Assembly: GCA_023101725.1 (NCBI GenBank)
Contig: JALJCO010012606.1
Location: forward strand, 186,001 to 250,000
Source of the DNA: Atherinomorus stipes
Lineage: Eukaryota > Chordata > Actinopteri > Atheriniformes > Atherinidae
Length of the DNA stretch: 64,000 nt
Reading direction: 5' to 3'
This document shows, piece by piece, positions 3,894 to 52,856 of the stretch. Within the stretch, counting starts at the first letter, position 1. The number at the start of each line of letters is the position of its first letter. The translations under genes and the position numbers were made by a program. The notes beneath the pieces were generated by a model, which did not search any database, had not been told where the DNA came from, and saw only the letters and a program-made list of their open reading frames with translations.

Positions 3894-6800
3894 ATGAGGA
3901 TGAACATCTGCTACCTGCTGCTTTTTGTTCTGCGCTTTATCAATGCAGGTGAGAGCATTTCACATTATCTTGTAATGTAGTCAGTTATCTTAATTCTATA
4001 AAAGGAATGGTTTTAAATAAGATTTTAAAAAGTCAGACTTGGTTTGAAAAGAAATGAACCATGTTTAACTTTTCTCTCACTGTTAAGAGTTTAATATTAT
4101 AATGATTTAAATGCTGTAATAAATTGGCTTATAGTAGATTATAAATCTAAATGCTTAACAGGGAGCATCAACTTTGGTACTTGAGGCAAACTGGTGCAGA
4201 ACTTACAAAGCAGTTGGACATCTGTTTAATCTGAACCAGGTGTGTTGCAACATCTAAAACCTACAGGACAGTAAGATTTTAGCACCAGGGCTGGTGATCC
4301 CTGGACTAAAAGTCCAAAATATTCAGTTGGATGCAACAAGGAAAAGAAGCGACGGCTCAACAACAGTTGATCATAACAATTAATGAACATGTTATTGCAT
4401 CCATTACCAGGGAAATCAAACAAATGCTCCAAATATCTTTTGGAAGTTTATCCCAGTAACATATAAGTGCAACAACTGCATCCTGTTCAGAGGCCAGCTC
4501 AGGTTGTGGTTAAGATTTGGTTAATTACATTAAACTCTTACCTCAGAACTTAATGCAGCTTTGGAAATGAGATATACCGGGAAGAATGGATTTTTTGAGA
4601 GCACACCTGCAATTGATGTGAAAAATGTGATTATGAGATGTTTTATGATTGTTTATACTCACTGTGTATGAAGGGTCATAGCTTTTATGATTTATAGATT
4701 TTTTTTTTTTTTCAGATGTAATCCATGATGTAGTGGAGGAGAAGAAGCAAATCGCTCTGCGTTGTCCTCACTCTGTGAAGGGTAACATGACATGGAGCAG
4801 AGAGATTAATGGAACTAAACTTGACATACTTACACATGTTGGTGACAGAGCCATAAAACACATTAATGACCAAATGAAACGTTTCAGCACATTAGCAGAT
4901 AAGTCACTGTTCATTATTAATATAAATGTCTCCGACTCTGGAAGATACTTGTGTAATAATCAATCAGCTGTGGACCTGACAGTGATCCCATCAGGTAACT
5001 TCACATTATTGTCCTTTTGTTCTTGTTATTTATTTATTTCTCTGTTAGATGCTTTCTTGATTTCTGATAGAAGAAATATTCTAATAAAATAATACCGGCT
5101 ATATTTTGAAATCCCAATCACATCTACTTGGCCTGGACAGTAATTAATTAGTAATACTTTCTTCCTGTTGTTAGTGGAGTTGTTGGTACAGTATCTATAA
5201 GACCTCCTGATTTATTTTAAATGAAAATTTGTTGAGCATAAAACAGTCACTTATAAACTTTGGACAATGTATAAAACTATGAATTCTCTTAACTCAGTGA
5301 TAATAGAATAAAACAGCTCTACATTTAATGAAACACAAGTCTTTCAGAACAAGTTAACACTGCTTTGGTTAGTTTATATTATTACTCAGCTACCTAAATA
5401 TATCACTATTCCTGTAGACTACAGGAGTCTCATTTAGGGAATATGAGTTGAAACTGTGACTACAAATATAGAGTTAAATTAATTGTCAAAGGACAAAACA
5501 TCTCAGGACATGCTATAAAAAAGTTTTCTGTGATGAAACATATTATTTCTAATGTCACTTGCATTCTTAAACAAGTTTACAATGACATACAGCATGTAGT
5601 TTGGTTCTTACTCAGTATGTTTGCTATTTACAGGAACAAAGATACAGAATGTTACAGAGAACGGTGACATTTCTCTCAAATGTCCCCATAAATTCGAAGG
5701 ACCTAATGTCACATGGAGCAGAGAAATTGCTGGAAAACAACAACAACTGAGAAAACGTGTTTCCACTGTGGAAAAGATGTTGAATTTTAAAAAAGTTAAG
5801 CGTGATGACTTTGGACTTTATTTCTGTTATGGAAAAGCAGCTGTTTATCTAAATGTGACCACAACTGGGAAATCAAATGGAGGTAAGAGACAAAAAGCCC
5901 CAATTTAAGCAGAAAATAGTATAAGTTGGGAATAATTTGACATTTTGCCTTCCATGAGATGGACACCTTTGTCACATCTGAGCATTGAACATCAAACATC
6001 TGGTATTAATGAGTTAGTACATTTTGCTTGGCTGAATCAAAGAGTAAGAACTTCATTGCTACGTAATATTATACTTAGAGAACACCACCTGTTATTAGTC
6101 TGCTAGCTTTTAGCTTGTTTATGCACAAAACAAATAATGAAATAATCTGGTTTAAGTTTGTTGACAGACTGAACACATGGAAGATGGGACAGTCAGTCAG
6201 TTAAAACCCAGTTTGCAGTATTACTGGGAGGAATAAGCACAGCCACTTACACAAATGAATGCACCTGATCCCAGATGAGGATCATATCTTTCTCATTTTT
6301 CATTGATCGTCTTAAGATTTAAAATCTCTCTTGCAAAAGTGTCCTAGTCAAGAAAGGCAGCAGCTCAAAGCAGAAAAAGTTGCACAAACATACAGATGAG
6401 GATGTACATGTACAAAACTAGAGGTTAAAACATTTAAAAAACTTTTAGCATTAAAAAGTAATAAGATCAGAACTTTACTTGTCAAGTCTTCATCATGATG
6501 TGGCAGAATGTAATGGAAAATCCTGCACGCCCTCTGAACAGCATAGTGGTGAAACAACAGTGTGTTCAGTCAGAGGCTTGTTCAGGTCAGCTCGTCGTGA
6601 TCAGAGGTAACCCAGCGGGTCCTGTGATGTTTAAAATTTGTTGCAGATCTTCAAGTTAAAGCAGTTCTTTCACACTCAAGCTCTTTTGTAGCAAGCGTAT
6701 AGGTTGCAGAGGGGAAGCACTCTAATTTGCCTTCCCTCCTCAACATGTCTTTGTTAACAGCAATGTGTCCCATTTTGAAATGTGTTGGCACGTAATCAAC

Positions 6801-21617: not shown

Positions 21618-22337
21618 TTACTGCACAGGACGGATCTTCATGCTGATGGCTTTTAGGGAGTAGTCGTGGCCCTTCCAGTTTTTCCACGACACTCCAACAG
21701 CAAAGAGAGTGTCATCTGCCCCCCAGCGATAAACCCCGTTAGGGTTTGCAGCGTGACAATTCATATACCAGAACCCCCCCAAGAATGTTTTGGCACAGTT
21801 TCTATCTGAGGTGTCCTGGTCTTTGTCAAAGGTGGAGAATTTATGTCCATCGTGGTCACTCAGAGCATCTTTTGCTCCCCCATCAGTGAACCCAGACACA
21901 CTGAGTCTGTAGCCTAAGGACTCTGGACCAATGGAGAACGAGGAGTAACGGGCAAACACCTTGTTTCCTTCAAAGTCCTCCATGTCCACCAGCAACTCAT
22001 ACTGTCTTCTCTGAGTGATGTGGAAGAGGCTCTCCAGACCGAGCCAGTACTCTCCAGCAGCGTTCCCAAAGCCCATCTTGTACTGATCCCAGGGCCTGTA
22101 GAAGTTCACCGAGCCATCCATCCTCCGCTGGAACACCGTCCACTGTCCTTCTAGAGAGTCCATGTCACAGAACACCTGAACAGCAGATGTGGCTCCAATG
22201 GGGTAGATGGTGTACACTCCACTGGGTTTGCTGGTACCCTGGTCACGGATATCACTGCAGTCCAGAGGGAGGATGAGAGGCGCACATCTGGTCAACAGAG
22301 GAACCAGGAGGAGGACGACGACTGACAACAACTTCAT
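21618..22337 (-). CDS. mfap4-like: microfibril-associated glycoprotein 4-like secreted fibrinogen-domain protein
   Basis: A single uninterrupted 239-codon frame. Residues 1-19 are a signal peptide (MKLLSVVVLLLVPLLTRCA). The rest is one fibrinogen-related domain with its hallmarks: LDCSDI (Cys 27), VFCDMD (Cys 57), GQWTVFQRRMDGSVNFYRPW, the calcium-site stretch DKDQDTSD (171-178), then CAKTFLGGFWYMNC (Cys 181 and 194), ending in KAISMKIRPVQ. Length and domain order fit MFAP4. Family proteins bind extracellular matrix or microbial sugars through this domain, and in fish mfap4 genes are used as macrophage markers; that is family knowledge. No coding intron is present. The start codon is preceded by a TATA box at a sensible distance. 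Ficolin-like lectins are the alternative, but there is no collagen stalk. Confidence 0.9.
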   Translation of the reverse strand: MKLLSVVVLLLVPLLTRCAPLILPLDCSDIRDQGTSKPSGVYTIYPIGATSAVQVFCDMDSLEGQWTVFQRRMDGSVNFYRPWDQYKMGFGNAAGEYWLGLESLFHITQRRQYELLVDMEDFEGNKVFARYSSFSIGPESLGYRLSVSGFTDGGAKDALSDHDGHKFSTFDKDQDTSDRNCAKTFLGGFWYMNCHAANPNGVYRWGADDTLFAVGVSWKNWKGHDYSLKAISMKIRPVQ

Positions 22338-22389
22338 GGTCAGAGCTGTTCTGAAGTGATCTGATGAAAGTCTGTCGTCTCAGAGCTGG

Positions 22390-24441: not shown

Positions 24442-27295
24442 ATGCTTAGTTTTGTCATTTTCTGTCATGTTTGGTTCCAGCTCAAAGATCTGATCAACTG
24501 TGTGGAAAACTCAACAGGTACACACTAATATTATACTATTTCAAATAGATTATTCTTATGAATGAATGCTTGTACAGTATTGACTTTTGATTCATTTAAC
24601 AACATTTATTTTCAACAGTCATTAATTACATGTTTTTTGTTATATTTGGGCAACTTTGCCATATTCAAATGATTATTCATAATTCACCTTTGGGATAAAT
24701 AAAGCATTTTTCTTTTCATGGTTGTCATGGTTAAGTATATTTTCTGAAAATATGTGTTATAATTATTATAATAATTAATTTATTAAATTTTAGTGTTATT
24801 CTTTTGTGTTTTATATCAAGGCATAACAACATTTATATTGTTTTCAATTATTTAATTTAATTTTTTTTTTTTTTTGCAAATATGTTTTAATGCAATTAAT
24901 TCTGTAACTGACACACAAACAGCATCAGTTGTAGATCTGAGACAGTATTTTCCATTGCAGTTGTTCTAGTCTGAGGGGATGATGGTGGACATGTTTCCAT
25001 GAGATAAAAGAGGAATGGCAGATAAAACAGGAAACAAGGCTAAAAACTGACTGTAACACGAGTGTCACAGCTAACAGCACTGTCATTAAGTACAGTGAAT
25101 TTTTTCCCCTGTCATTTAAAAAAAAAAAAAAAAAAAGGAAATCTGAAGCAAAATTTAACTCTTTTTGTTCTTTATGTGTCATAAAAATAGAAACATAAAC
25201 AAGCAGATCAATTATGTCTAACAGTTCCTCAGGACCAGAGCTTCGGATATGTGGCCAGTGCCCCCTCTCTAACAGTGACCCAGTTTTCGGTCCCGGAGGA
25301 TCACCACGTCTGTCTGTCGTGTGGTGGCTCGTTCAGCTCGGATGTGGTCTGGACTTTTCAGGACAGGAAGGTTCTTGTTACCCGGGAGGGCAGCCACCAG
25401 ACCAACCAGGACCACCAGCGCTACCTTCTGCTGACTGATGGCAGCTTCTGCCTGCTGAAGCTCGATGACTCCGACAGGGGAGAGTACCACTGTAACCAGA
25501 AGCTGGTGGCTGAACTGCAGGTGCTCTCAGGTATGATGGAGGTGGAGTTATAAGTGATGCGTTATGGGATGGAGAGACAAACTGATGTATCAAAATGTTG
25601 CAACCATAACAATCTGAATATTGGAACCATTTAGTATTCAAAGCAAGCGGCAACCTCTGGTGGCCAACTGGCCAGGAAGAAGTCATTTTTTGTAGTTCTT
25701 TTTTTTTATGTACAAATAAACACTATTATGAAATGTGCTACAATTAATTAGCAAAGAAGCTAGTGACTGGTAAGGGTGTCATAATTGGTTATTGTAAAAG
25801 TAAAGACCAAAAGCTTAGTCTTTCTAATCATGTCAGTGTTCCTGAAATCATCTGTGTGTATAATAGAGAAAATCATTACATAATATACCGAAAACAAATT
25901 GTATAGTTTGAAAAGTGATGCATGAATATATGTGTGTGAATTTGTGGATGTTTGTGACTGTTAATGCAGAATATGTAAAAAAAAAAAAAAAAAAGAAAGG
26001 GGGGGGGGGCACACACGGGCACACACTTTTTTCCATTTTGATATGATCTGATACTGATACCAGTCACTTAAAATGTTCCTCATATTATTCATTTATTTAG
26101 TCTTACCTACAGATGATATCAAACGCCTGCTTGGCTAAAAGGAAACACCTTTCTATGTGTTACCCATTTTTGAAAAGCACCAATGATAACATCATACTTA
26201 TTTAGCAAGCGCACATAAAATTGTCAAAAATATTCAGCAGGATTAAATGTCTAAATGGATATTTCACAGTCATGAAAATGAGGTTTAATGTGTTAAAAGA
26301 GGATGTTGAGGGCTGGATAAAAAAAAAAAAAGTGGAGGAACTGTGTCTGAAATGAGGAAATTATGTTCCCACAGTCTAACTTTGTTCCATACACATCAGA
26401 CTTCCATAAATATATTTTTGAAATACTCTGTTACACAGAAGAAGTTTGAAATGTTGCCAAACTAAAAGTATCTTTACAATAATGTATGTATAAAATATTG
26501 GCTCTGCTAAAACTAAAAATACCATAAGAGGAAAACTCTTGCCCTTTTAGAAGCTCATACATCCATCTTTCCTCGTTTCCTCACCCCCAGGCCACGACTT
26601 CACAGTGTCTGCAGGCCGGACTCTGCTGCTCCCCTGCAGGGGCTCCTCCAGACCCAAACAGAGGTGGTTTCGACAGAGAGGAGAGAAGAGGGAGGCCATC
26701 TTCACCCGCTTCAGAAATGGTACAGAGAGGCAGGAGATGGACGGGAGTCAGCTCAGCTACACCAACAATGCGCTGCAGATCCAGAACCTGCAGCCAGAGG
26801 ATGCTGGAGAGTATCTATGCAACGGAGTGCTGCAGGCCAAAGTCACTGTCCTCACAGGTTGATATACTCTAGTCTTTATCAGTCCTGGTTATTATCCTTT
26901 TTTTTACCTTAAAAAAAAGATATACAAACAGATGCTAAATCTGACAGAAATGAATAGCTGAAGAAAATTCACAACTATCCTGAATTAATATTTACTTTTT
27001 AAAAATACAAATGGATCATGTAAGGTTATATGAACTGGCAGCCGTTTATCATTTCTTAATGCTAATATGCAAATAACTTACCCGATCTACCCTTGAACAT
27101 TTCCACGTTGTACCTGAATAATAAATTAACAAAGGTTTCATGTTCTAGTCCAACCAGAGGCAACCAGCATCCCATCATCCACCAGTACAACTCCAGTGTC
27201 TGCTGTGACAAAGACAGGTAGTTCTTTGTGAACTCTGAAGTTGCATTTTAAAACATGAGTTAGAAAAAAGATTAAATTGATCATTTTCACAGATG

Positions 27296-27326
<31 letters not shown>

Positions 27327-29453
27327 AAATTTGCTAAAATTGATCAAATTTCACTGCAAATTTATCGATTTTGTTGGATGTAAAAAGACTTTTTCTCTTA
27401 TCAAGTTCATAATGTGAAAATCTATATTATGATAGCCATTTATTCAGGTACTTTATTAGGATTTTTCTTAATTCACAACAGGGATACACGATATTGGAAT
27501 TTTGGTCGATATCCGATATGCCGATATTTTAAAACTCATGTGGCTGATAACTGATATCGATAGCAATATTAAAGCTGAAAAAAATAAGCAGTCATTGCAA
27601 ATTGCAGTTTTGTCATCTGTTTCTGACACTTTGAAAAATAGGGGTGGGTAAAAATATAAATACACAGAAATATCACAATATTTTCACATGCCGATATCAA
27701 TGCTGTATTGATCTATTTTGCTTACAAAGTCTTGCGAGATTTCATCAATTTGTTAAAAAACTTCACAGTATTTCGTGAATTCTCACGAGATTATGTGTGT
27801 AAAATAGATCAATACTGTCACTATATCAGCATACAAATACAGCGTTTTTAAATATCAATATGATATCAGCATATGAAAATATCGCGATATTTCAGTGTAT
27901 TGTTTTATTCCCCCAAACTTTAGAAGTTTTAAAGCCTGTAAAAAAGAAGTATTTGAAGAAGTTGTTTTGGTTTTTTTCTAGAATTTAGAAACAGCAGACT
28001 GATTGGTTAAATATCGGTGATGTGGCCGATGTCCGATATTCAGTTTTAAGGCCGATATAGGCCAGTGCCAATAGGGGGCAGATTATATCGTGCATCCTTA
28101 ATTCACAATACTCCATCTTCAAAAGTTATGTCATTTTCCCCACATCTAAAAGCATAGAAGACTCATTAGAATGTTTGCAAGTTATGATTTTAGTAAAAAT
28201 GAAGAAAAAGAAGACATTTTATAATGTGACCACTTGATTTAGTCTTTCCTGTTGTTCCCTTTTCTGTTTATCAGATGTGGATGAAATGCAGAACGAGACA
28301 AAGAAGAAACCTGAAAACGGTGAGTCAGCCACCTCACGTGCTGCACACGCCCACATTCATCCATAGATCACATCTGCAGGTTCTTGTCAGGCTGTTGATC
28401 AGATGTTTTATTGTTCTCAGCTCTGCTGCTGATCGCTGTTGTCGGTTTAGGATTGATGATCATCCTCATGGCTGCTGTCTGTGCTTTACTCACAAGCATG
28501 AAGTGCAAGAGGAAGAAGAAATACAAATATGCAGGTATGAGAGCAAAATTTACATTATTATTATTTTAAATCAGGTTATTTTAACATTACTGAAATTACA
28601 GTTGAAGGCACTGGTACAGGTAAACTTTAAAAAAAAGAAAAGTAAAGTGACATTTGCACTGATCAAGTGCGCAGAAATTTTCTCTTTTCAAAAAAATAAG
28701 AAGAAAAATTAAAACAGCTAAAACTGACTTTTATTTTACTTAGAAAAACAAACGTCTCAAACTCTCAAAAATAGTTACATTCATCAATCAACAGTTTTTT
28801 TTTCTCTTTTTTCCTTAAAAGTTGATACTCTAAACAAACTTGAACATTTTCTAATCTCATTATTTCTTATCTATTTCACACTTAAATGTTGGCAAATCAG
28901 TAAAGGAATATATATTAATACTGTTGCCAAAGATATTCACAGTTATAGATTATGGGCTGCTTTATTTTCACATTATGATTCCTGGGTCACTAATAATGAA
29001 TATGAGATATGCAGTTTAGAGAATGTGTGCCTATTTTTGGCAGACAAATCTGTAGATGGCTCAAATTTTTCCCAGTTTTCCGATGATAAAAACTTTTTTG
29101 CTTTCATTATCAACTTTCTGCTGTCTCTGCAGCTGCGCAGAGACATGAAGACACGGAGCTGCAGCCGTGGAGGACGTCCAACATGCAAAATGGTAACTCT
29201 GCCCCCCCCCCAAAAAAGAAAATTTAATCCTCCGAACTGTTTTAAAAGTGAAAATGTGTATATAAATTGTCTGTTTCCAGAATGTGAGGTGGTTGAGAGT
29301 CCACCCCTGGAGGAAGAAACGATCCACTACGCCTCTTTGGGCCGACAGAACTGGAGGGAGAGACCAAACTGGTCCCCGGCTGATCAGAGCCCCCACAGTG
29401 TTATTTATTCCTCAGTCATCACTGGAACTGCAGCCAGAAACATGGCCTACTGA
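24442..29453 (+). CDS. two-Ig-domain inhibitory receptor with two ITIMs
   Basis: Eight exons, all internal borders phase 1: 24442-24517, 25225-25530, 26591-26857, 27149-27217, 28275-28319, 28421-28534, 29133-29192, 29281-29453 (369 aa). Exon 1 gives a signal peptide (MLSFVIFCHVWFQLKDL...). Exon 2 is a V-like Ig domain (VCLSCGG, VVWTFQD, DSDRGEYHC). Exon 3 is a second Ig domain (LLLPCRG, QRWFRQR, PEDAGEYLC). Exons 4 and 5 form a Ser/Thr-rich then charged stalk. Exon 6 is the membrane helix (LLLIAVVGLGLMIILMAAVC) followed by KCKRKKKYKY. The last exon has two motifs that fit the ITIM consensus, TIHYASL (Tyr 329) and SVIYSSV (Tyr 355). ITIMs recruit SHP-type phosphatases, so an inhibitory leukocyte receptor is the likely role. 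The acceptor at 25221-25224 is chosen because the later one at 25230-25232 breaks the Ig frame. No orthologue is named. Confidence 0.85.
27479..28097. mobile_element. hAT-like miniature element, copy 2, intronic
   Basis: Starts CAGGGATACACGATATTGGA and ends TATATCGTGCATCC. An identical 11-base direct repeat, TTAATTCACAA, flanks it at 27468-27478 and 28098-28108, which marks the insertion. It lies in the intron between stalk exons 4 and 5 of the two-ITIM receptor. Confidence 0.8.
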
Positions 29454-32737: not shown

Positions 32738-35700
32738 TCATCTGTGGTCATGTAATTCATTTAAGTTCTTGCAATCAGCAACTGTGGAGTATGTAACCGG
32801 TTCTTCTACCAGTCCGGTTCTTCCCCTGCCGGATGGCCGGGCCTTGTTTGGACGCCTCAGACTGGAATATTGCAAAGACTCTTCCTGCAGAGATGGTAAT
32901 CAGATTACAATGTTTACATTCCTGCAAAATCTTTTATCAAAAATTTAACACAAGTATTTATGTTCCCAAAGATAAATACAATGTTATGACCAAATATAAA
33001 CAGATATGACAGAAAGGAAGTATAATAATTATGTAAATGAAATTAAATCCATAATAAACTATTTTTTTAAAATACATTTGATCTCTATTTCCTAAATGAA
33101 TTGATGAACATTGAGGACATGATCTGACCAATGTCAATACTATGAAACCTAATCATGTTTGAAGGACAGTAAAATGAGCTCTTATCATATGAGACCTTCA
33201 AATATTGTAAATTAACATTAAAACATGTATCAACAATAGAGATCTAAACTGAACACAGAAAGTAATTCAATTTTGAGAGACTGACGACGACACAGTTGGT
33301 GTCAAAGCAGTCCACTTGCACAATAAAGCTGTAAATTATCAGTAATTATCAGTAAACCTCCCATTTTTTTCACATTTTAATAGTAATGAAATACCAACTG
33401 GTGTTGTATTATACATTGTTGTGAAACCTGATTGCAGGGATGCCCGATATTGGAATTTTGGGCCATTATCCGATATGCCGATATTTTAAAACTATGTGGC
33501 CAATGACCCATATCGATACTGATATAAATGCTGAAAAAAATAAGCAGTCATTGCAAATATCATTTTTGTTATCTGTTTCATACACTTTGAAAAATAGAGG
33601 TGGGAAAAATACCGATACACTGAAATATCGCGATATTTTCATATGCCCATATCAAATCGATATTTGAAAATGTGGTACTGATCTATTTTACTTGCAAAAT
33701 CTTGCAAGATTTCATCGTTCTGTTAAAAACTTGCGATATTTCATGAATTCTCGCGAGATTTTGTTCGTAAAATAGATCAATACTGCGTTTTCAAATGTCA
33801 ATATATCAGCATATGAAAATATCGTGAAATTTTCGTGAATTCTCACGAGATTTCGTAACAGAACGATGAAATATCGCAAGATTTCATTAGTGAAATAGAT
33901 TGATACCACGTTTTTGAATGTCAATATGATATCAGCATATGAAAATATTGTGATATTTCAGCGTATCGATATTTTTTCCCACCCCTCATCTATATAAGTT
34001 TTAAAGTCTGCACCTAATAAAACATATGCTTTCCAACCATGTATAATACAACAATTGTTATTGTTTAAGGGGTAAAATAACTGACCGAACACTTATTTCC
34101 TTACTTTTTTGTGCAAAGTTTGCATCAGATATGAGTTCTGAAACAAGCTGGACAGATTTCGTATCTCATCGAAATGCATATTTAAGAGGACTTTTCTGAA
34201 AAGAGGGAGAAAAAAAGTCAGGATGCTACATGAAAGTTGACTGACCTCAGCGACTCTCAGGCTGGCGTTCCAGCCCACCGGATTACAACAGCAGCAAGCC
34301 GGTTTTCCTGAAGACAAGATTGAAACTGAGATCAGGACACAAAACTGGGTCTGTGGTTAACATTTAACTTGAAATAAATAAATAAAAAACTATGAGGAGC
34401 CTTGAAAAAGTTACTCATTGTAGGGGAAGTGAGTTCATCCACTTTACAAAAGGGGAAAAAAGTGGACACGACGAAAATGACCAAATTTTGTCTGAAACTT
34501 TGGGAAGAATTTACTTTAAAAGAATGTGTGCGTGTGTGTGTGTGTGTGTGTGTGGGGGGGGGTTATCGCCGCTGTCAGCTTCCGTAGCAGCTGATCTATT
34601 CAAAGCATCTAGGCTACATTTCTGTCAGCTGATGTCTTCAGTGGGAGTAAATCTAAACGCGTTTCAGTATCGGTGCTGTTTAAAATACAGAGATTTCTTC
34701 AGCGGTGCTATTTGAACATGATTTTTTTAGGGAAGGTTAAAGGGAGAAAATCAGTTTTGGGCACCAGCTGCGATCGCCCGCAGCCAGAACACACCCAAAC
34801 TTCACCCACTTACAAAAGCGAGAGCGAAAGTGAAAGTTTAGTTGGTGAAGGGGCAGATCGGCGTCGTGGTCTTCCGCTCCCACTTTCCTTCAAGGAAAAT
34901 CTTCCTCTCGCTCTCCGTGAAGACAGACAGACTGCCGTCTCGCCTCTCTCCGAGGGAGAAGATCATTTTTTATTCCCTCCAGCCCTTCACTGCCTCTCAG
35001 CACCATGCCAGACCCGAACCTGTGTCTCGAGGCCCTGTCTGCCCTCTCCGGCTGCAGAGTCGAGTCGACGAGCGGAGCCTCCCTGCTGGGACCGCAGGAC
35101 TTTGTCAACGTTGTGGCCCTCAGGGAGTTTTACAAACAGGAGGGGTTTCAGCAGCTGGAATACCCAAGTATAGGGTCATTATCCCTCCAGGACGCGGACA
35201 GCATGGATTTGTACAGCTCCCCCCTGGCGCTGACGGAGGGGGCGACGGAGAGCCATACAGCCTCCGTAAAAATAAATATCCAGGAGTTCTTCCATCCTCA
35301 GTATGATTATGACTTCACCAACATAAAGGTGGGTGGAAATTAAAGCCTCCTTCTGTGGTTATAGAGGGGTTAAATGTGACAGGTGTGATGTAGCAGGCCA
35401 CAATAAAACCAATAAAACATGTTTTATTTAGTCTGAATATTAGATGCAGGGTAATAGGAAGATTTAAGGTTATTCATAGCAGTGTCCACCGATTTGAGGG
35501 TCTTTCTGTTGTGTGCAACTACAGGCTTAAAATAAGTGAAGAATTAAGGAAGCAAACACGGTTATAAATGTGTGAGAATGTGAGAAATTAGATGAAGATG
35601 AAAGGAATGAAACAAGTGCATGACTAAGTGAATATCATGAGAAAAAGCTTTAATCCTGAGCAGAAAGTTGTGTACTGAAATTTGCTTCCTGTATTCTCAT

Positions 35701-38700
35701 AAAACTGAGTGTGACTGGGTTAAATCTGTGGTTTCAGTCTTGACTGTTAACCCTTTGCTTACTTCCAGGATGGTGACAAGACGTTCTCGCGTGGTAATGA
35801 GCAGTACGTTCGTCCTTGCGGGTGGAACCGGGTGGCCCTGCATGTCTCCCAGAAGTACGAGGGTGGGGACCACTGGCTCGGGACGGGAAAGGACGCCTGG
35901 CCCGTCTCTTACCAAGGATACAACATGGATGGCTCCCAAGGCATCATCCTGACCCGTGATGGAGACCCAGATGATGAGCCACATTTTCTGGAAGCCAGTG
36001 CCGCCTCTCTGGTCACTGAGAGGATGAGAGGCAGGGGTGTGTACTCTACACCAGACGTCAAGATGGCAGAGAAGTACTGCAAGAGGTTCAAGTCCAAAGT
36101 GGATGGGAAGACGTACAAAGTGGTTCTTCAGAACCGCATCAACCCCGAGAAAAGGAATATGTGCCAGAGGAAAGATGTGTGGGTGGTGTACGTCCCTGAG
36201 GGAAGCAACGACATCCAAACGAGGGCCATCGTTCAGGAGTCCATCCGTCCATACGGGCTGCTGCTGAAGCAGGTGTGAGCCGAGCTCCCACAGTAAACAT
36301 TTTCAGGAAATCTACTGAAAAACGTTATAAAAGTGGGATAAAATCCGTGATTCCTAGCCTTTGATTCTTGTTTATCAGACACAAAACTGCCTCATCATCT
36401 ATAACTTCCCTTAACTGTGGAGCTTACAGAAAATAATCCTTACTGTTGACCTGCACTTTGGGAATGGTTACATGAAATCTAACAGTAGAAAGAGAAAGCT
36501 GGGAAATCCCTGATAAGATGCTGACTTGTGCTGCCATCTAGTGGTATTTAGTGATAATTTCCTTCAGATTGTAGGAAGTGGATCTTTCAGTTGTGGGTGT
36601 GGTATGATTGCTATATTTTACTTTCTTTTTCTTTATTGCACATATCTGAGCTGACTTTGTGAATTAGAAGAGGCAAAAACGTGTATCATCCAACATTCAT
36701 CATCTGTTTTTAAAATTCTAGCGTGACATTTAGATTAAACATGAATTTTATTCAGTTCAATTGTTTAATTGTTTCTTTGAATTAAAAACATTGATGTTTT
36801 TACAGCAGTTTTTTCCCCCTTTAATTTTTAGTGATGCTTAATTGTTTGGTTAAAATCCATGACTTAGCTATACGGAAAATACTTGTGTGAATAGATACTT
36901 GGCACTTTAGCTAATAATCAATCACTTCTCACTTCTTTTACCTGCATGTGCAGAGCTCTGTAAATAAGTGTGAATTGCAATAAACTGAGTGAAGAGATGC
37001 TGGCGTCATTTTTTTTTTTTTCTAGGATTTGAGGAAGCCTTTCTCATCATCTGTTGGTGTTTGTACATACAGTCGTGCTCATGATTACTGACACGGTCCA
37101 ATTAAAGAAAAGGCTAAATTCACAATAATTAAAAAAAACTAATAATATATAAAAATTGACAAAATTATAATTTAGCGAAACAAAATATTGCTTTGGAATT
37201 GTGGAAGGTAATATTGATAAAAAAACAAATAAACAAAACTGGCCCAGACACATTAGAGCATCATTCCTGACAAATGTGGACCAAAACACGTGTCAACAGG
37301 TGTAAATGTCTATTCTAGTCACCCACATGCCGAACAACACTCTGAAGCACTTTTTTGATATCTCAAATGCAGCTGGAGATCTGGGAAGCTTCTTGATGTC
37401 TGCTGACATTCAAATAATGGATGTCCCCGGCGCCTGAGCCAAAAACATCCATAAAAGTCCACAAAAACTTGTCAATATTCCTCCACACCGCTCGTTCAAT
37501 GTAATCCAAGTGTCCTGTGTGGGTAGTGTCCATAATTTACTTGAAACGACGTCATTTAGTATATTTTTAGTCTAAACAGTACTACATCGCATCTCCAGCA
37601 AGCACGCCAATGCATGTTCACGACACTACGGAAGCCGCGGCAGACGAGATCGCGCGTTCTCTTTTTCTTTCTTTCTTTGTTTTAAATCAATATCCAACCC
37701 GTCTTGTTTTTGTCCTGGTTTGTCTGCAGCTCTGGTGCTCTTAGAGCAATGTAAACAGCGAATTTCTTTTTCTACGCCTGCATTATCGGCAGAGTAGTCG
37801 CTGAACGCCGAGGCTTATTTTTAAGGTCTAAAAGTTACAGTGTGTCTTGAAATAATTACTCAAATCTTCAAGTCACATTATTTCAGAATAAGAAAAATTT
37901 TACTTCCAAAACTTCTGCAACCAAATCCTACATAAATTAGGTCAAGTATCAAAATGCTGTAAAATACATTAAACTCGTATATATAACAAGCTTCAGTGGT
38001 TTTGGACTGCACCAGATTGCCACACAGGTGCAGTAAGATACAACCAGACACGTACCTGAGCGCATGCAGAGCCCGACCACGATGACGAAACAAATGGCAA
38101 GTACACTTGGAAGGACACAGATTCCCAGGTTCCAACATGGCTGACCCATTCTGTTTCCAGTGGGGTCCCCCTCAACTCCAGGGAAAAACAAAACACAGAT
38201 GCAAGACAGATTAGGGCTGGGCGATATACCGGTATGATATTGTGATATGATATTTGCATAAGAGAGATATGACATTTGCATATACTGTTATATTTTTTTT
38301 GTTTTTATAAATGTTATTTTTTTCGTAATAACCTGGCTGCACCTCGACTGACAACAAAGGTGTCACCTGATTATTTAAATTAACCTAGAATAAAATAAAA
38401 AATAATAATTTAATTAATTAAAAAATAATACTAAATTAAATAATTATTCATTATTTATTTTATTTATTTATTTTATTCTATTCTGTCTGGAATCCTCCCC
38501 AAGACTTCTACAAAGAAATCATAAATGGCCAGCCCACTATCATGAAGTTTTTCGATTTAACAAACATTTCTAACCAGCGTTTGTCAACTCCATCACTGAA
38601 GTGAAGCTCTACCTTTAATCTAAACATGTTTCAATACTAAAAAACAGGTATTTGATATGAAATGAAACATTCAGACAAATTAGGGGAAAAATACCAGTAT

Positions 38701-41700: not shown

Positions 41701-43762
41701 AACCATAAAGAAACAAAATACTCTCCATACTCCTGCTGATTTAATCTGGTATCAGCAAAAGCTAATTTAGAGTGAACAAGTTTTTGAAGCTTTGAATTAA
41801 AAAAAAAAAAAAAAAGAAAAAAAAAGCAAGTTCACTTTCTGGTATCTTTACTTTTCTGGGTCGCTAAAGAGCTGAAACAGATAAAACAGAATCCAAACAG
41901 GCTGTAGAGGATGTAGAAAACTGATGATTTTTTTTACTCTCACACACACTGTGAAAACTCACTTACTGATATTATAAAAGAAATGAATTAATCTATCATG
42001 AAATGACTCATTTGTTAAAAAAAGCAAATGAGGCAAATACTCAAAAGTCTGACATGAGAAGCAAACTTACCACCACTTGCTTTCCCCCTGAATGTTGCAA
42101 TGACTTAGATCTCAGCAAAGCATTACTTTACAAACCCATTACTTTAACTTGATCTTATTCACTTCAACCAAAAAAAAAAAGTCTGCAACATTTCAGTTTA
42201 AGGTCCAATCTTCTTAAGTTATAATTGTTACTATTTTATATTTAGCTTCCTTGGAACAAGTAGAAAAATAAAAACTTGCGCTGAAGCGACCACAAAAAGT
42301 AAATACTTACCATTCACAAGCAGGCGAACTCCTGCGTTAACATGCACAGTATCTGCACACCGCCCAGCACAGAAGTACACCCCGGCATCCTCCTCCTCTG
42401 CTGCCAGGATCTCCAGACTAAGCAGACCACTCTGCAGGTCTCCGGACCAGCTGATGTGACTGGCGTTGGCAGTGTGGAAGGAGGCTGTGTCTACATCTAC
42501 CATACTGGTTTTTATTGTGAGCAGAGGCAGCAGCTGGTCTGAACGCAGCAGGTACCAGGTGATCTCCGTGCTGGGAGTTATGTTGCAGGGCAGAGACACA
42601 TTCTGACCTGTCTGGACCACCAGGGCGGAGCGGAGAACAGGCGAGGGGGATGACAAGTGACATCCTGCAGCACCTGAGGAAAATGGACAAGGATTTATCA
42701 TGTTTATTTGTTTCAGCTCAGCTATCTGTAGACCTGATATACTGTAATAAATGTGTTCAGATGAACACTGAAAATTTGGAAAAGACTGAACAAAGGCATA
42801 AATATACTGTTTATCTGGTTTATTTTTGTTATCACATTAAATATTTTTAATTGTTCCCCCTGTTGAGTAGTTAATCACCAGTTTTTGTGCTTGTGTCTGT
42901 GCTTTTGCTTGTGGGTCAAAGACAAATAAGGATTTAAAATTTGAAATATATAAAACTGTGTAAAAATTATGACTCAAGCCCTTAAGTTCATTAGGCTGTT
43001 CTGTTTACAAGTCAAGCATCAAAGATTAATATCAAAAATGAAAATTGCACTTTCTTTATGGATTGTAAGCAAAATTTAGGAATAAATGTCCTTAGTGCGT
43101 AACAGGAATGGATTTTAAAGTGATTAAAACTGACCTAATGACATTTTAAAAAATTGTCTGGGTCTCTCGGTGTCTCTCAGTGAGTATGCAGTAGCCAGTC
43201 ACATGAATACAAAAATGTTTTTGGGGTTATTTTGGCATTTTAATGTCTGCTATCCAGGGAGGAAAATTATTACTTGTGTAAATGTAAAAAAAAAAAAAAA
43301 AAAAAGCCTTGGGTTTTTACTACATTAGTTGGGTTATTATTGTTATTAATCTACACATCATCACAATGATGCCCAAGTAGATTATTTACACCCTTCTATT
43401 TTTTTTTCCCAACCACATTTTGTTGAATTAGACGTAGGCTAATCGGAATAGTTATGAAGAAAAAAGGAAGGCTGATTTACTCCAGCATGAGAAATCGGAG
43501 GTGTGGCATGAGAGCAAGCCATTTAAATGCGTGAGCTGGCACCAATTTCAGTTTGGTGTAACCTCAGCTAAGCCCGGGTAAAACTTCACCAAAACCCCAA
43601 GTTTTGGTAAATATGTAAAGGCACTGCTGAATTAAAACAAGCGCAGAACACAGTAGCTACCTTTAGAAAAAGATAAGAGTTGTGTATCTGAATTTAAATG
43701 CACTTAATAATGAAAATAAGTAACTTACAAAGAACAGACAGGATCCAATGGAAAACTGCCAT
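32738..43762 (-). CDS. single V-domain inhibitory receptor with two ITIMs
   Basis: Five minus-strand exons: 43762-43729, 42673-42311, 38175-38056, 34307-34246, 32884-32738 (241 aa). Exon 1 and the start of exon 2 form the signal peptide ([15 protein letters not shown]). Exon 2 is a V-type Ig domain with [13 protein letters not shown] and EDAGVYFC, plus an extra Cys in CAGRC. Exon 3 holds a short stalk and the membrane helix ([20 protein letters not shown]). Exon 4 starts the tail with four consecutive cysteines (KPACCCCNP), possible palmitoylation sites. Exon 5 carries two ITIMs, SLQYSSL (Tyr 199) and PVTYSTV (Tyr 225), and ends at TGA 32740-32738. Borders are phase 1, 1, 1 and 0. A stronger-looking donor at 34104 would extend exon 4 to 34105 and add 47 in-frame residues. 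The intron between exons 4 and 3 contains the whole ART-like gene on the opposite strand. The likely role is an inhibitory leukocyte receptor; ligand unknown. Confidence 0.8.
33435..34012. mobile_element. hAT-like miniature element, copy 3, truncated
   Basis: Starts CAGGGATGCCCGATATTGGA, with the same interior as 27479-28097, but the right inverted end is missing and similarity stops near 34012. It lies in the intron between the last two exons of the V-domain receptor. Confidence 0.65.
34525..34562. repeat. (GT)n tract followed by a G run
   Basis: GT dinucleotides running into nine G residues, about 440 bases before the start codon of the ART-like gene. Confidence 0.9.
34826..34837 (+). promoter_or_regulatory. 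IRF/ISRE-type element upstream of the ART-like gene
   Basis: GAAAGTGAAAGT matches the IRF element rule (GAAA, two bases, GAAA, then G/C T/C) without mismatch. It lies 167 bases upstream of the ATG at 35005, preceded by GCGAGAGC. Such elements confer interferon or IRF control in vertebrates. Function here is inference from sequence and position. Confidence 0.6.
35005..36278 (+). CDS. ADP-ribosyltransferase-like protein, uncharacterised family
   Basis: Two exons, 35005-35328 and 35769-36278, joined in phase 0 at NIK|DGDK (277 aa). There is no signal peptide or membrane helix, so it is likely cytosolic. The N-terminal 108 residues have no domain I recognise. Exon 2 carries a conserved block: [51 protein letters not shown], then RPYGLLLK. 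The GRGVYSTPD...AEKYC stretch resembles the tyrosine motif of PARP-type ADP-ribosyltransferases, and uncharacterised proteins of this pattern occur in fish, invertebrates and fungi. This is memory-based, not a search. The position where ART proteins often have a His-Gly motif reads Gln-Gly here. The gene lies antisense within an intron of the V-domain receptor. An IRF-type element upstream suggests interferon control. Confidence 0.75.
36979..36984 (+). terminator. polyadenylation signal of the ART-like gene
   Basis: AATAAA 700 bases after the stop codon, with no closer canonical signal on the plus strand. It defines a likely 3' UTR of about 0.7 kb. Confidence 0.5.
38212..38771. mobile_element. 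miniature element with TAGGGCTGGGCGATAT ends
   Basis: The left TAGGGCTGGGCGATAT and the right ATATTGCCCAGCCCTA are near-perfect inverted repeats. The interior has repeated GATATGATATTTG motifs near both ends. It starts only 37 bases beyond the acceptor side of the membrane-helix exon of the V-domain receptor. The target duplication is not clean. Confidence 0.75.
39565..40230 (-). pseudogene. decayed Tc1-type transposase
   Basis: The minus strand encodes recognisable Tc1 motifs in broken frames. [14 protein letters not shown] and a following KVDGKMNA (first catalytic Asp region) lie near 39930-40000. [14 protein letters not shown] and [11 protein letters not shown], then STIENL (second Asp and Glu region), lie near 39735-39830. 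The left end TACAGTGCCTAAAAAAAGAC at 39565 resembles a Tc1 terminal repeat. Frames are interrupted and the N-terminal DNA-binding part is not seen. It lies in the intron between the V and membrane exons of the V-domain receptor. Confidence 0.7.
40231..42310. other. intron of the V-domain receptor, repeats only
   Basis: Contains a decayed Tc1-type miniature element (from about 40236, AATATTCATACCCTCCAATT) and AT-rich sequence with long A runs. No exon-like segment seen on either strand. Confidence 0.4.
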
Positions 43763-44824
43763 AATCTTAATGTTTCCAATACTCTCCAGGTGAGCTGGAA
43801 GAACTGACAACAGCGCGTCGACTGACTCAGTTCATGAAGGCGACAGATTTTAATGGGAGGGAAATGAGTGGGGTTTTATTCTGTCACAGGGCAGCTGGTA
43901 ACATGTCGCAGAAGACGGAAGGGTGACTATTTTTCCTCGTAAGACGAGTCTCACCCAGACACAAACGTTCATATTCCTGACACCTCTTCTGCTGAGTCGG
44001 CTTTTGGCTGAAAACGAGACAAAACAATCCATAGTTAAGTTTCGTTTCTGTGTTGATTGTCGGTGCACCAACGTGTACGCGTAACACCGGAAGTTTTCTT
44101 TTTTTCCAAAACAAACTTAGCAGGAAAAGTACAGAAATTTTTGTTGGTCGATTGTCTCCTCTTTACAGAAGCCCGTTTCTGATGAACAACCCCCTCCCCT
44201 CCCCAAACATAGCTATCTCATAACTGACTATAATTTCATGAGAGTTATCCCAAATTAAAAAGAAGTAGAAGAAATAAAATGAACAGAAGAATATTGCAGT
44301 GGATGAGTTGCTCATGCCACAGAAGCACAATCTTTATAAATTACACTTAATCGCTGTCTTCAGTAACCAGCCCAGCAGACACAGAGCAAATACTTTTAAG
44401 CATTTTGTGTTGCTAACTTCCAAATGTTTTTGAAAACCAATTAAGTTCTTAATACTAGCAAAATTTAAATGAATCAGAATTGGTTTGGGATTCATCATTT
44501 TCATGTAATGAAGTACACAGGCTTAAAAAGATCTCCATTGTTTGCCCATGTGCATATTTTAATGCTTATTGACAACAAGTATAATATTAACAAATTGTTT
44601 TACCATCTGGAGACTCTTTAAAGAAAAAAAAAAAACAAAAACAAAAGGGGGGTGTCAGACTGAATCAATTCTTTTGTGCTTTTATTTTGAAAAAGCATAT
44701 CTGCCGGAAATCGAAACCTACGGGTCCTTAAATTCGCGTATCAGCTGATAGTAAACATTCAGTCCGAATCATCTAGCGGAGGACAGAGAAGAGGAGTGAA
44801 CGAAGTATCCAAGGAGTGTACACA
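43763..44824. promoter_or_regulatory. divergent intergenic region between two Ig genes
   Basis: This 1.06-kb stretch separates the start codons of the minus-strand V-domain receptor (43762) and the plus-strand GPI-type Ig protein (44825), so it should hold both promoters. No TATA box is obvious for either gene. Small frames at 43850-44114 have no domain. Confidence 0.5.

Positions 44825-52856
<8,032 letters not shown>

What the first reader, a model, noticed from the sequence alone, without database searches (positions are those of the whole stretch)
34826..36278. ART-like gene nested antisense inside an inhibitory-receptor intron
A complete two-exon gene with an ADP-ribosyltransferase-like motif block lies inside the intron between the membrane and tail exons of the minus-strand ITIM receptor. 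An exact IRF-type element lies 167 bases upstream of its start. Transcription of one gene could interfere with the other, coupling an interferon response to receptor level.
Basis: partly seen in the sequence, partly recalled or inferred. Interest (0 to 1): 0.75.

Follow-up and report, generated by a model that had tools for sequence, protein, structure and literature searches.

The report
PARP-like gene inside inhibitory-receptor intron
In an unnamed spiny-rayed fish, a small gene whose protein is predicted to fold like PARP enzymes lies backwards inside an intron of an immune inhibitory-receptor gene, with an interferon-type switch sequence just in front of it; both genes look real and seem to stay linked in other fish, but whether one affects the other is untested.

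The parts
34826..34837 (+). IRF-type element GAAAGTGAAAGT, 167 bases before the ATG of the nested gene
   Evidence: only strict RAAASYGAAASY match in the window, 0.66 expected; 14 of 5000 shuffles of the 200-base upstream stretch have one; consensus recalled
35005..35328 (+). nested gene, coding exon 1 (residues 1-108; N-terminal part without known family)
35329..35768 (+). intron of the nested gene, GT-AG, phase 0
35769..36278 (+). nested gene, coding exon 2 (residues 109-277; PARP-like fold; putative triad positions Q157, Y200, V245)
36979..36984 (+). AATAAA, probable poly(A) signal of the nested gene
   Evidence: sequence only
43729..43762 (-). receptor exon 1: start codon and signal peptide
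42311..42673 (-). receptor exon 2: IgV domain
   Evidence: Pfam V-set 9.6e-13 on the piece typed from this exon
38056..38175 (-). receptor exon 3: membrane segment, 120 bases, phase 1-1, so skipping keeps the frame
34308..38055 (-). receptor intron 3, 3748 bases, holds the nested gene
34246..34307 (-). receptor exon 4: cysteine-rich juxtamembrane tail
32738..32884 (-). receptor exon 5: tail with LQYSSL and VTYSTV (ITIM-like) and stop

Best explanation
This is a nested gene pair of the fish immune system whose linkage is conserved. The inner gene encodes a PARP-fold protein ('ADP-ribosyl transferase 19-1'-like) from its own promoter; an IRF-type element close to the start most likely makes it respond to IRF factors, that is to virus or interferon. 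Its protein keeps the PARP-type scaffold but not a fixed catalytic triad (Q-Y-V here, H-Y-V or H-Y-I in many relatives). It therefore probably works as a mono-ADP-ribosyltransferase in some species and as a non-catalytic adaptor in others, including this one. The outer gene is a single-IgV inhibitory receptor with two ITIM-like motifs. Inferred: induction, loss of catalysis, inhibitory signalling. Coupling of the two genes by transcription is possible but not part of this explanation.
Against: Z stays under 8, which the tool says can mean only a common arrangement, and no sequence profile search reached significance (best PARP match E 0.036 in 2 of 40). Residues 158-160 also vary (6, 34 and 24 changes), so 157 is not a lone variable spot but the edge of a variable stretch. 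No expression data. The element could not be checked in other fish, because the collections offered hold no other fish genome. Mapping of 157, 200 and 245 onto the PARP triad rests on motif and predicted strands, not on a residue list. Locus tags differ by 283 (Odontesthes) and 405 (Fundulus) and one GeneID pair by about 4.2 million (Kryptolebias), so adjacency is not shown in all species.
Confidence: 0.55

Rival explanations
1. Regulated coupling: when the nested gene is switched on, polymerases running head-on through receptor intron 3 lower receptor transcription or favour skipping of the membrane exon, so an antiviral response turns the membrane receptor into a soluble form.
For: Antisense nesting in the intron next to the membrane exon; that exon is 120 bases, phase 1-1; isoforms labelled X2 of Enoplosus, Sander vitreus and Perca lack just this segment (3 of 52 hits); its acceptor here ends in GAG, unusual at -3 (recalled); linkage; exact IRF-type element. 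A review states that opposite-strand host and nested genes are likely to be inversely regulated (PMC4394429, passages).
Against: No expression data; skipping could be independent of the nested gene; the poly(A) signal at 36979 lies about 1 kb before the membrane exon; the same review says most nested genes code for proteins functionally unrelated to their hosts.
Confidence: 0.1
2. Nested position is an accident of a gene-dense immune region; the inner gene is a housekeeping or tissue gene and the IRF-type element is chance.
For: The looser GAAANNGAAA core occurs 15 times in the window; a strict match somewhere in 64 kb is expected 0.66 times; conservation of the element could not be tested.
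Against: The one strict match falls within 180 bases of the ATG (14 of 5000 shuffles for the 200-base stretch).
Confidence: 0.25
3. The nested gene is a divergent member of the fish Gig2 family of interferon-induced genes.
For: Gig2 is a fish interferon-stimulated family with a weak PARP-like stretch (PMC3617106, parts 1-3 of 6 read).
Against: The typical Gig2 unit there is far shorter (CauGig2A, 276 aa, is made of two units of 147 and 129 aa and is almost twice as long as the other four crucian carp proteins); Gig2's PARP-like part is N-terminal, here the PARP-like fold is C-terminal. No Gig2 sequence was compared directly.
Confidence: 0.07
4. An active H-Y-(V/I)-class mono-ADP-ribosyltransferase in which Gln or Asn can stand in for His.
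For: Many mono-ADP-ribosylating PARPs lack the Glu (H-Y-I, H-Y-L; PMC7955679, passages); human pART9 is Q-Y-T (PMC1266365, passages) and PARP9 is reported to act together with DTX3L (PMC9964302, passages).
Against: PARP13, Y-Y-V, is listed as inactive; four other residues occur at the His position, with at least 20 H/non-H changes in either direction on the tree.
Confidence: 0.3

Closest known systems
'ADP-ribosyl transferase 19-1' of Miichthys miiuy (UniProt A0AB39ACA0) and unnamed LOC orthologues
   Same: 75% identity over the full length; same family
   Different: the label comes from the record alone; residue 157 is Ser there, Gln here; no paper with 'ART19-1' in the held library
PARP/ARTD catalytic domains (PARP16, PARP14, PARP12, PARP10)
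   Same: predicted fold; motif GxGxY; third triad position hydrophobic as in several mono-ADP-ribosylating PARPs
   Different: no significant sequence match; His position not fixed; N-terminal half without known family
Pseudo- or variant PARPs: PARP13 (Y-Y-V), PARP9 (Q-Y-T)
   Same: PARP scaffold with altered first triad residue; PARP9 and PARP13 are named among interferon-upregulated genes
   Different: those are larger multidomain proteins (PARP13 902 aa); this one is 277 aa
Gig2 family of fish interferon-stimulated genes
   Same: fish, short, PARP-like part
   Different: PARP-like part at the other end; no direct sequence comparison made
Novel immune-type receptors (NITR) and other IgV ITIM receptors
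   Same: IgV similarity incl. NITR11 3bdb, E 3e-7; ITIM-like tail
   Different: one IgV only, CCCC juxtamembrane stretch; many antibody and TCR V domains score as well or better (60 of 1113 matches shown)

Membership tests
PARP-type ADP-ribosyltransferase | PARP catalytic fold | tested here: inconclusive
PARP-type ADP-ribosyltransferase | significant match to the PARP profile (PF00644) | tested here: not met
   best E 0.036, 2 of 40 members; none for the window protein itself
PARP-type ADP-ribosyltransferase | first triad residue His | tested here: not met
   Gln in the window protein; H in 67 of 121 rows; position assigned by motif
PARP-type ADP-ribosyltransferase | triad Tyr in GxGxY | tested here: met
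   Y200, 120 of 121 rows
PARP-type ADP-ribosyltransferase | ADP-ribosyl transfer | not testable with these tools
   needs enzyme assay
Interferon-stimulated gene | IRF/ISRE-type element in the promoter | tested here: met
   sequence only, transcription start not known
Interferon-stimulated gene | induction by interferon | not testable with these tools
   no expression data held
Gig2 family | sequence homology to Gig2 proteins | not tested
   no Gig2 sequence was at hand
ITIM-bearing inhibitory Ig receptor | signal peptide, Ig domain, membrane segment, ITIM motifs in one gene | tested here: met
   36 of 52 hits pass a simple pattern test for IgV and both tail motifs
ITIM-bearing inhibitory Ig receptor | phosphatase recruitment and inhibition | not testable with these tools
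   needs cell assay
Nested antisense gene pair | complete gene within one intron, opposite strand | tested here: met
   window only, from gene models; linkage elsewhere

The most novel reading that the evidence does not exclude
An interferon-driven, head-on transcription unit inside an inhibitory receptor works as a splice switch: induction of the nested PARP-like gene makes the receptor lose its membrane exon and be secreted, so that antiviral state and loss of inhibition are wired together by position in the genome.
Probability: 0.06. Interest if true: 0.85.

Novelty: new member of a known kind. Interest (0 to 1): 0.42.

Why it matters
If the inner gene is interferon-induced, percomorph fish have an additional PARP-fold interferon gene without a Pfam family. 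Its often-changed catalytic position makes it a natural series for asking what a PARP scaffold does without catalysis. The nesting next to an in-frame membrane exon with labelled skipping isoforms gives a compact, testable case for whether head-on transcription changes immune-receptor form.

Tried and rejected
Gig2 was my first guess for the nested gene; from the paper's description the layout differs, so I did not keep it. Bacterial and viral relatives: pattern scans of genome contigs and viral contigs gave 15 and 17 stretches, none confirmed. Rfam: nothing at gathering score in the window. PDB by sequence: none for the nested protein at E up to 1 or, for its last 155 residues, 10. NCBIfam: none. 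Literature, listings only: 4 of 4 papers listed; 10 of 871; 10 of 10; 10 of 1,388; 8 of 393; 8 of 131; 8 of 158; 6 of 54; 'ART19-1', 0 papers; none listed is about this gene by title or abstract start, but the lists are capped, so absence from print is not shown. Six LOC numbers: 0 papers. Term searches inside papers: a 2026 review of fish interferon-stimulated genes has no 'ADP-ribos', 'PARP' or 'Gig2' (PMC13030082); a poly(I:C) study in spotted knifejaw brain cells lists the term 'NAD+ ADP-ribosyltransferase activity' among those enriched at 6 h without naming the gene in the passage (PMC12842581); PMC9503650 holds 'Gig2' only in its reference list. The last protein search was meant to reach distant relatives, but only the best 120 of 782 hits are listed and every named one is a fish orthologue. 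Paralogues in the host genome could not be searched, as the machine did not answer. The receptor model (pLDDT 64) was not compared with solved structures.

Full report
Gene structures. The nested gene reads from ATG 35005 through one phase-0 intron (35329-35768) to a stop ending at 36278 and gives 277 residues. Four splice joins keep the frame; the chosen one gives a product that aligns with the orthologues without a gap at the junction. The receptor has five exons on the minus strand, 43762 to 32738, with GT-AG ends and phases 1, 1, 1, 0. The nested gene, with a poly(A) signal at 36979, fits inside receptor intron 3 of 3748 bases. As modelled, the two mature mRNAs share no exon; transcript ends are not known.

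Is the receptor one gene? The assembled 241-residue protein finds 52 proteins; the best, from Melanotaenia boesemani, is 80% identical over 100% of the query. In alignment A2 (the query and 21 of the 52) the IgV part and the tail with LxYSSL and VxYSxV-like motifs run on in one protein in every row. A pattern test finds IgV motif plus both tail motifs in 36 of 52; of the other 16, three have both tail motifs but miss my IgV pattern, four have only the first tail motif by my pattern, and nine have neither, among them short proteins but also three of 236-259 residues. The ITIM consensus is recalled. So the exons belong together.

A membrane exon that can be left out. Rows P0152, P0163 and P0166 (labelled X2 for Enoplosus, Sander vitreus and Perca) lack the segment that exon 3 encodes here and keep the rest; they have no stretch above a hydropathy mean of 1.6 over 19 residues, though P0163 comes to 1.48. 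In the window exon 3 is 120 bases, phase 1 to 1. Its acceptor ends in GAG, an unusual base three from the exon (recalled), and most rows of A2 have one codon more at this junction, Melanotaenia not. This exon borders the intron that holds the nested gene. Whether these facts are connected is unknown.

Linkage. From the listings, 29 species carry both proteins; in 27 the two contigs have the same length. The two others are Scatophagus (no contig given) and Oryzias melastigma (different lengths and label styles, probably two assemblies). Of 17 pairs with GeneIDs, 7 differ by 1, 13 by 3 or less, then 8, 11, 19 and about 4.2 million (Kryptolebias). Of four locus-tag pairs, Menidia differs by 1, Tautogolabrus by 14, Odontesthes by 283 and Fundulus by 405 (labels). 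Two shared contigs are under 100 kb. The remaining 12 of 41 receptor species have no counterpart among the 120 listed nested-gene hits, 173 hits not being shown. Nesting was read only in the window.

The catalytic positions. By motif and predicted strands (154-157, 197-202, 246-250) the triad positions are 157, 200 and 245. Over 121 rows residues 152-155 are invariant and 156 is Y in 120; 157 is H 67, Q 29, N 20, S 4, C 1; 158 is G in 113; 196 and 198 are G in all; 200 is Y in 120; 245 is V 70, I 35, L 5, M 4, Y 4, T 2, F 1, never E. On a quick tree built without column 157, H against non-H needs at least 20 changes in either direction (shuffled labels: mean 39.6, range 33-46, 50 shuffles); letters at 157 change 27 times and at 245 26 times, while 152-156 change 0-1 times. 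Against a special status of 157: its neighbours 158, 159 and 160 change 6, 34 and 24 times, and only 24 of 118 inner branches are well supported, so counts are approximate. In published tables PARP13 is Y-Y-V and inactive, PARP10 and PARP12 are H-Y-I (PMC7955679, passages), pART9 is Q-Y-T (PMC1266365, passages). I read this as a scaffold under strong constraint whose catalytic His is dispensable. Otto et al. also report, for most pARTs, a phase-0 intron shortly before the His; here the phase-0 intron lies 48 residues before position 157.

The switch element. GAAAGTGAAAGT is exact for the IRF-element consensus (recalled). It is the only strict match in the window; 0.66 would be expected, so its presence somewhere is unremarkable, but its place within 180 bases of the start is less so (14 of 5000 shuffles for 200 bases, 36 of 5000 for 500 bases; place chosen after the fact). 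The looser core is frequent. Function and conservation are untested.

Verdict. The pair is real and its linkage looks conserved. An interferon-inducible PARP-fold protein is the most likely identity of the inner gene. Positional coupling with the receptor is an attractive, cheap-to-test idea without direct evidence; nested genes are common enough (about 1% of human genes, most functionally unrelated to the host; PMC4394429, passages) that an accident of position remains likely.

Noticed in passing
38056-38175 (-): Membrane exon of the receptor has a GAG acceptor and one codon less than most aligned orthologues at the junction; isoforms labelled X2 in three fish lack this exon.
   Followed up: partly
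44824-46713 (+): Probable divergent Ig-domain gene starting about 1 kb from the receptor start; ISRE-like AGTTTCGTTTTC at 45107-45118 would lie in its first intron. Gene model read by eye only.
   Followed up: partly
25191-29453 (+): Probable second ITIM receptor on the plus strand: two Ig exons (within 25191-25553 and 26551-26859), membrane-like frame near 28399, tail with IHYASL and VIYSSV. Splicing not worked out.
   Followed up: partly
21618-22379 (-): Open frame for a fibrinogen-C (MFAP4-like, name recalled) protein, PF00147 5.6e-76.
   Followed up: no
27561-28101, 33517-34010, 47677-48312: Pieces of a dispersed repeat, 65-93% alike, with inverted arms inside two of the copies; one lies in receptor intron 4, the intron next to the one that holds the nested gene.
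   Followed up: partly
4691-5092 (+): IgV-like exon of a further Ig gene (V-set 4e-06), so the window looks like an Ig-receptor cluster.
   Followed up: no
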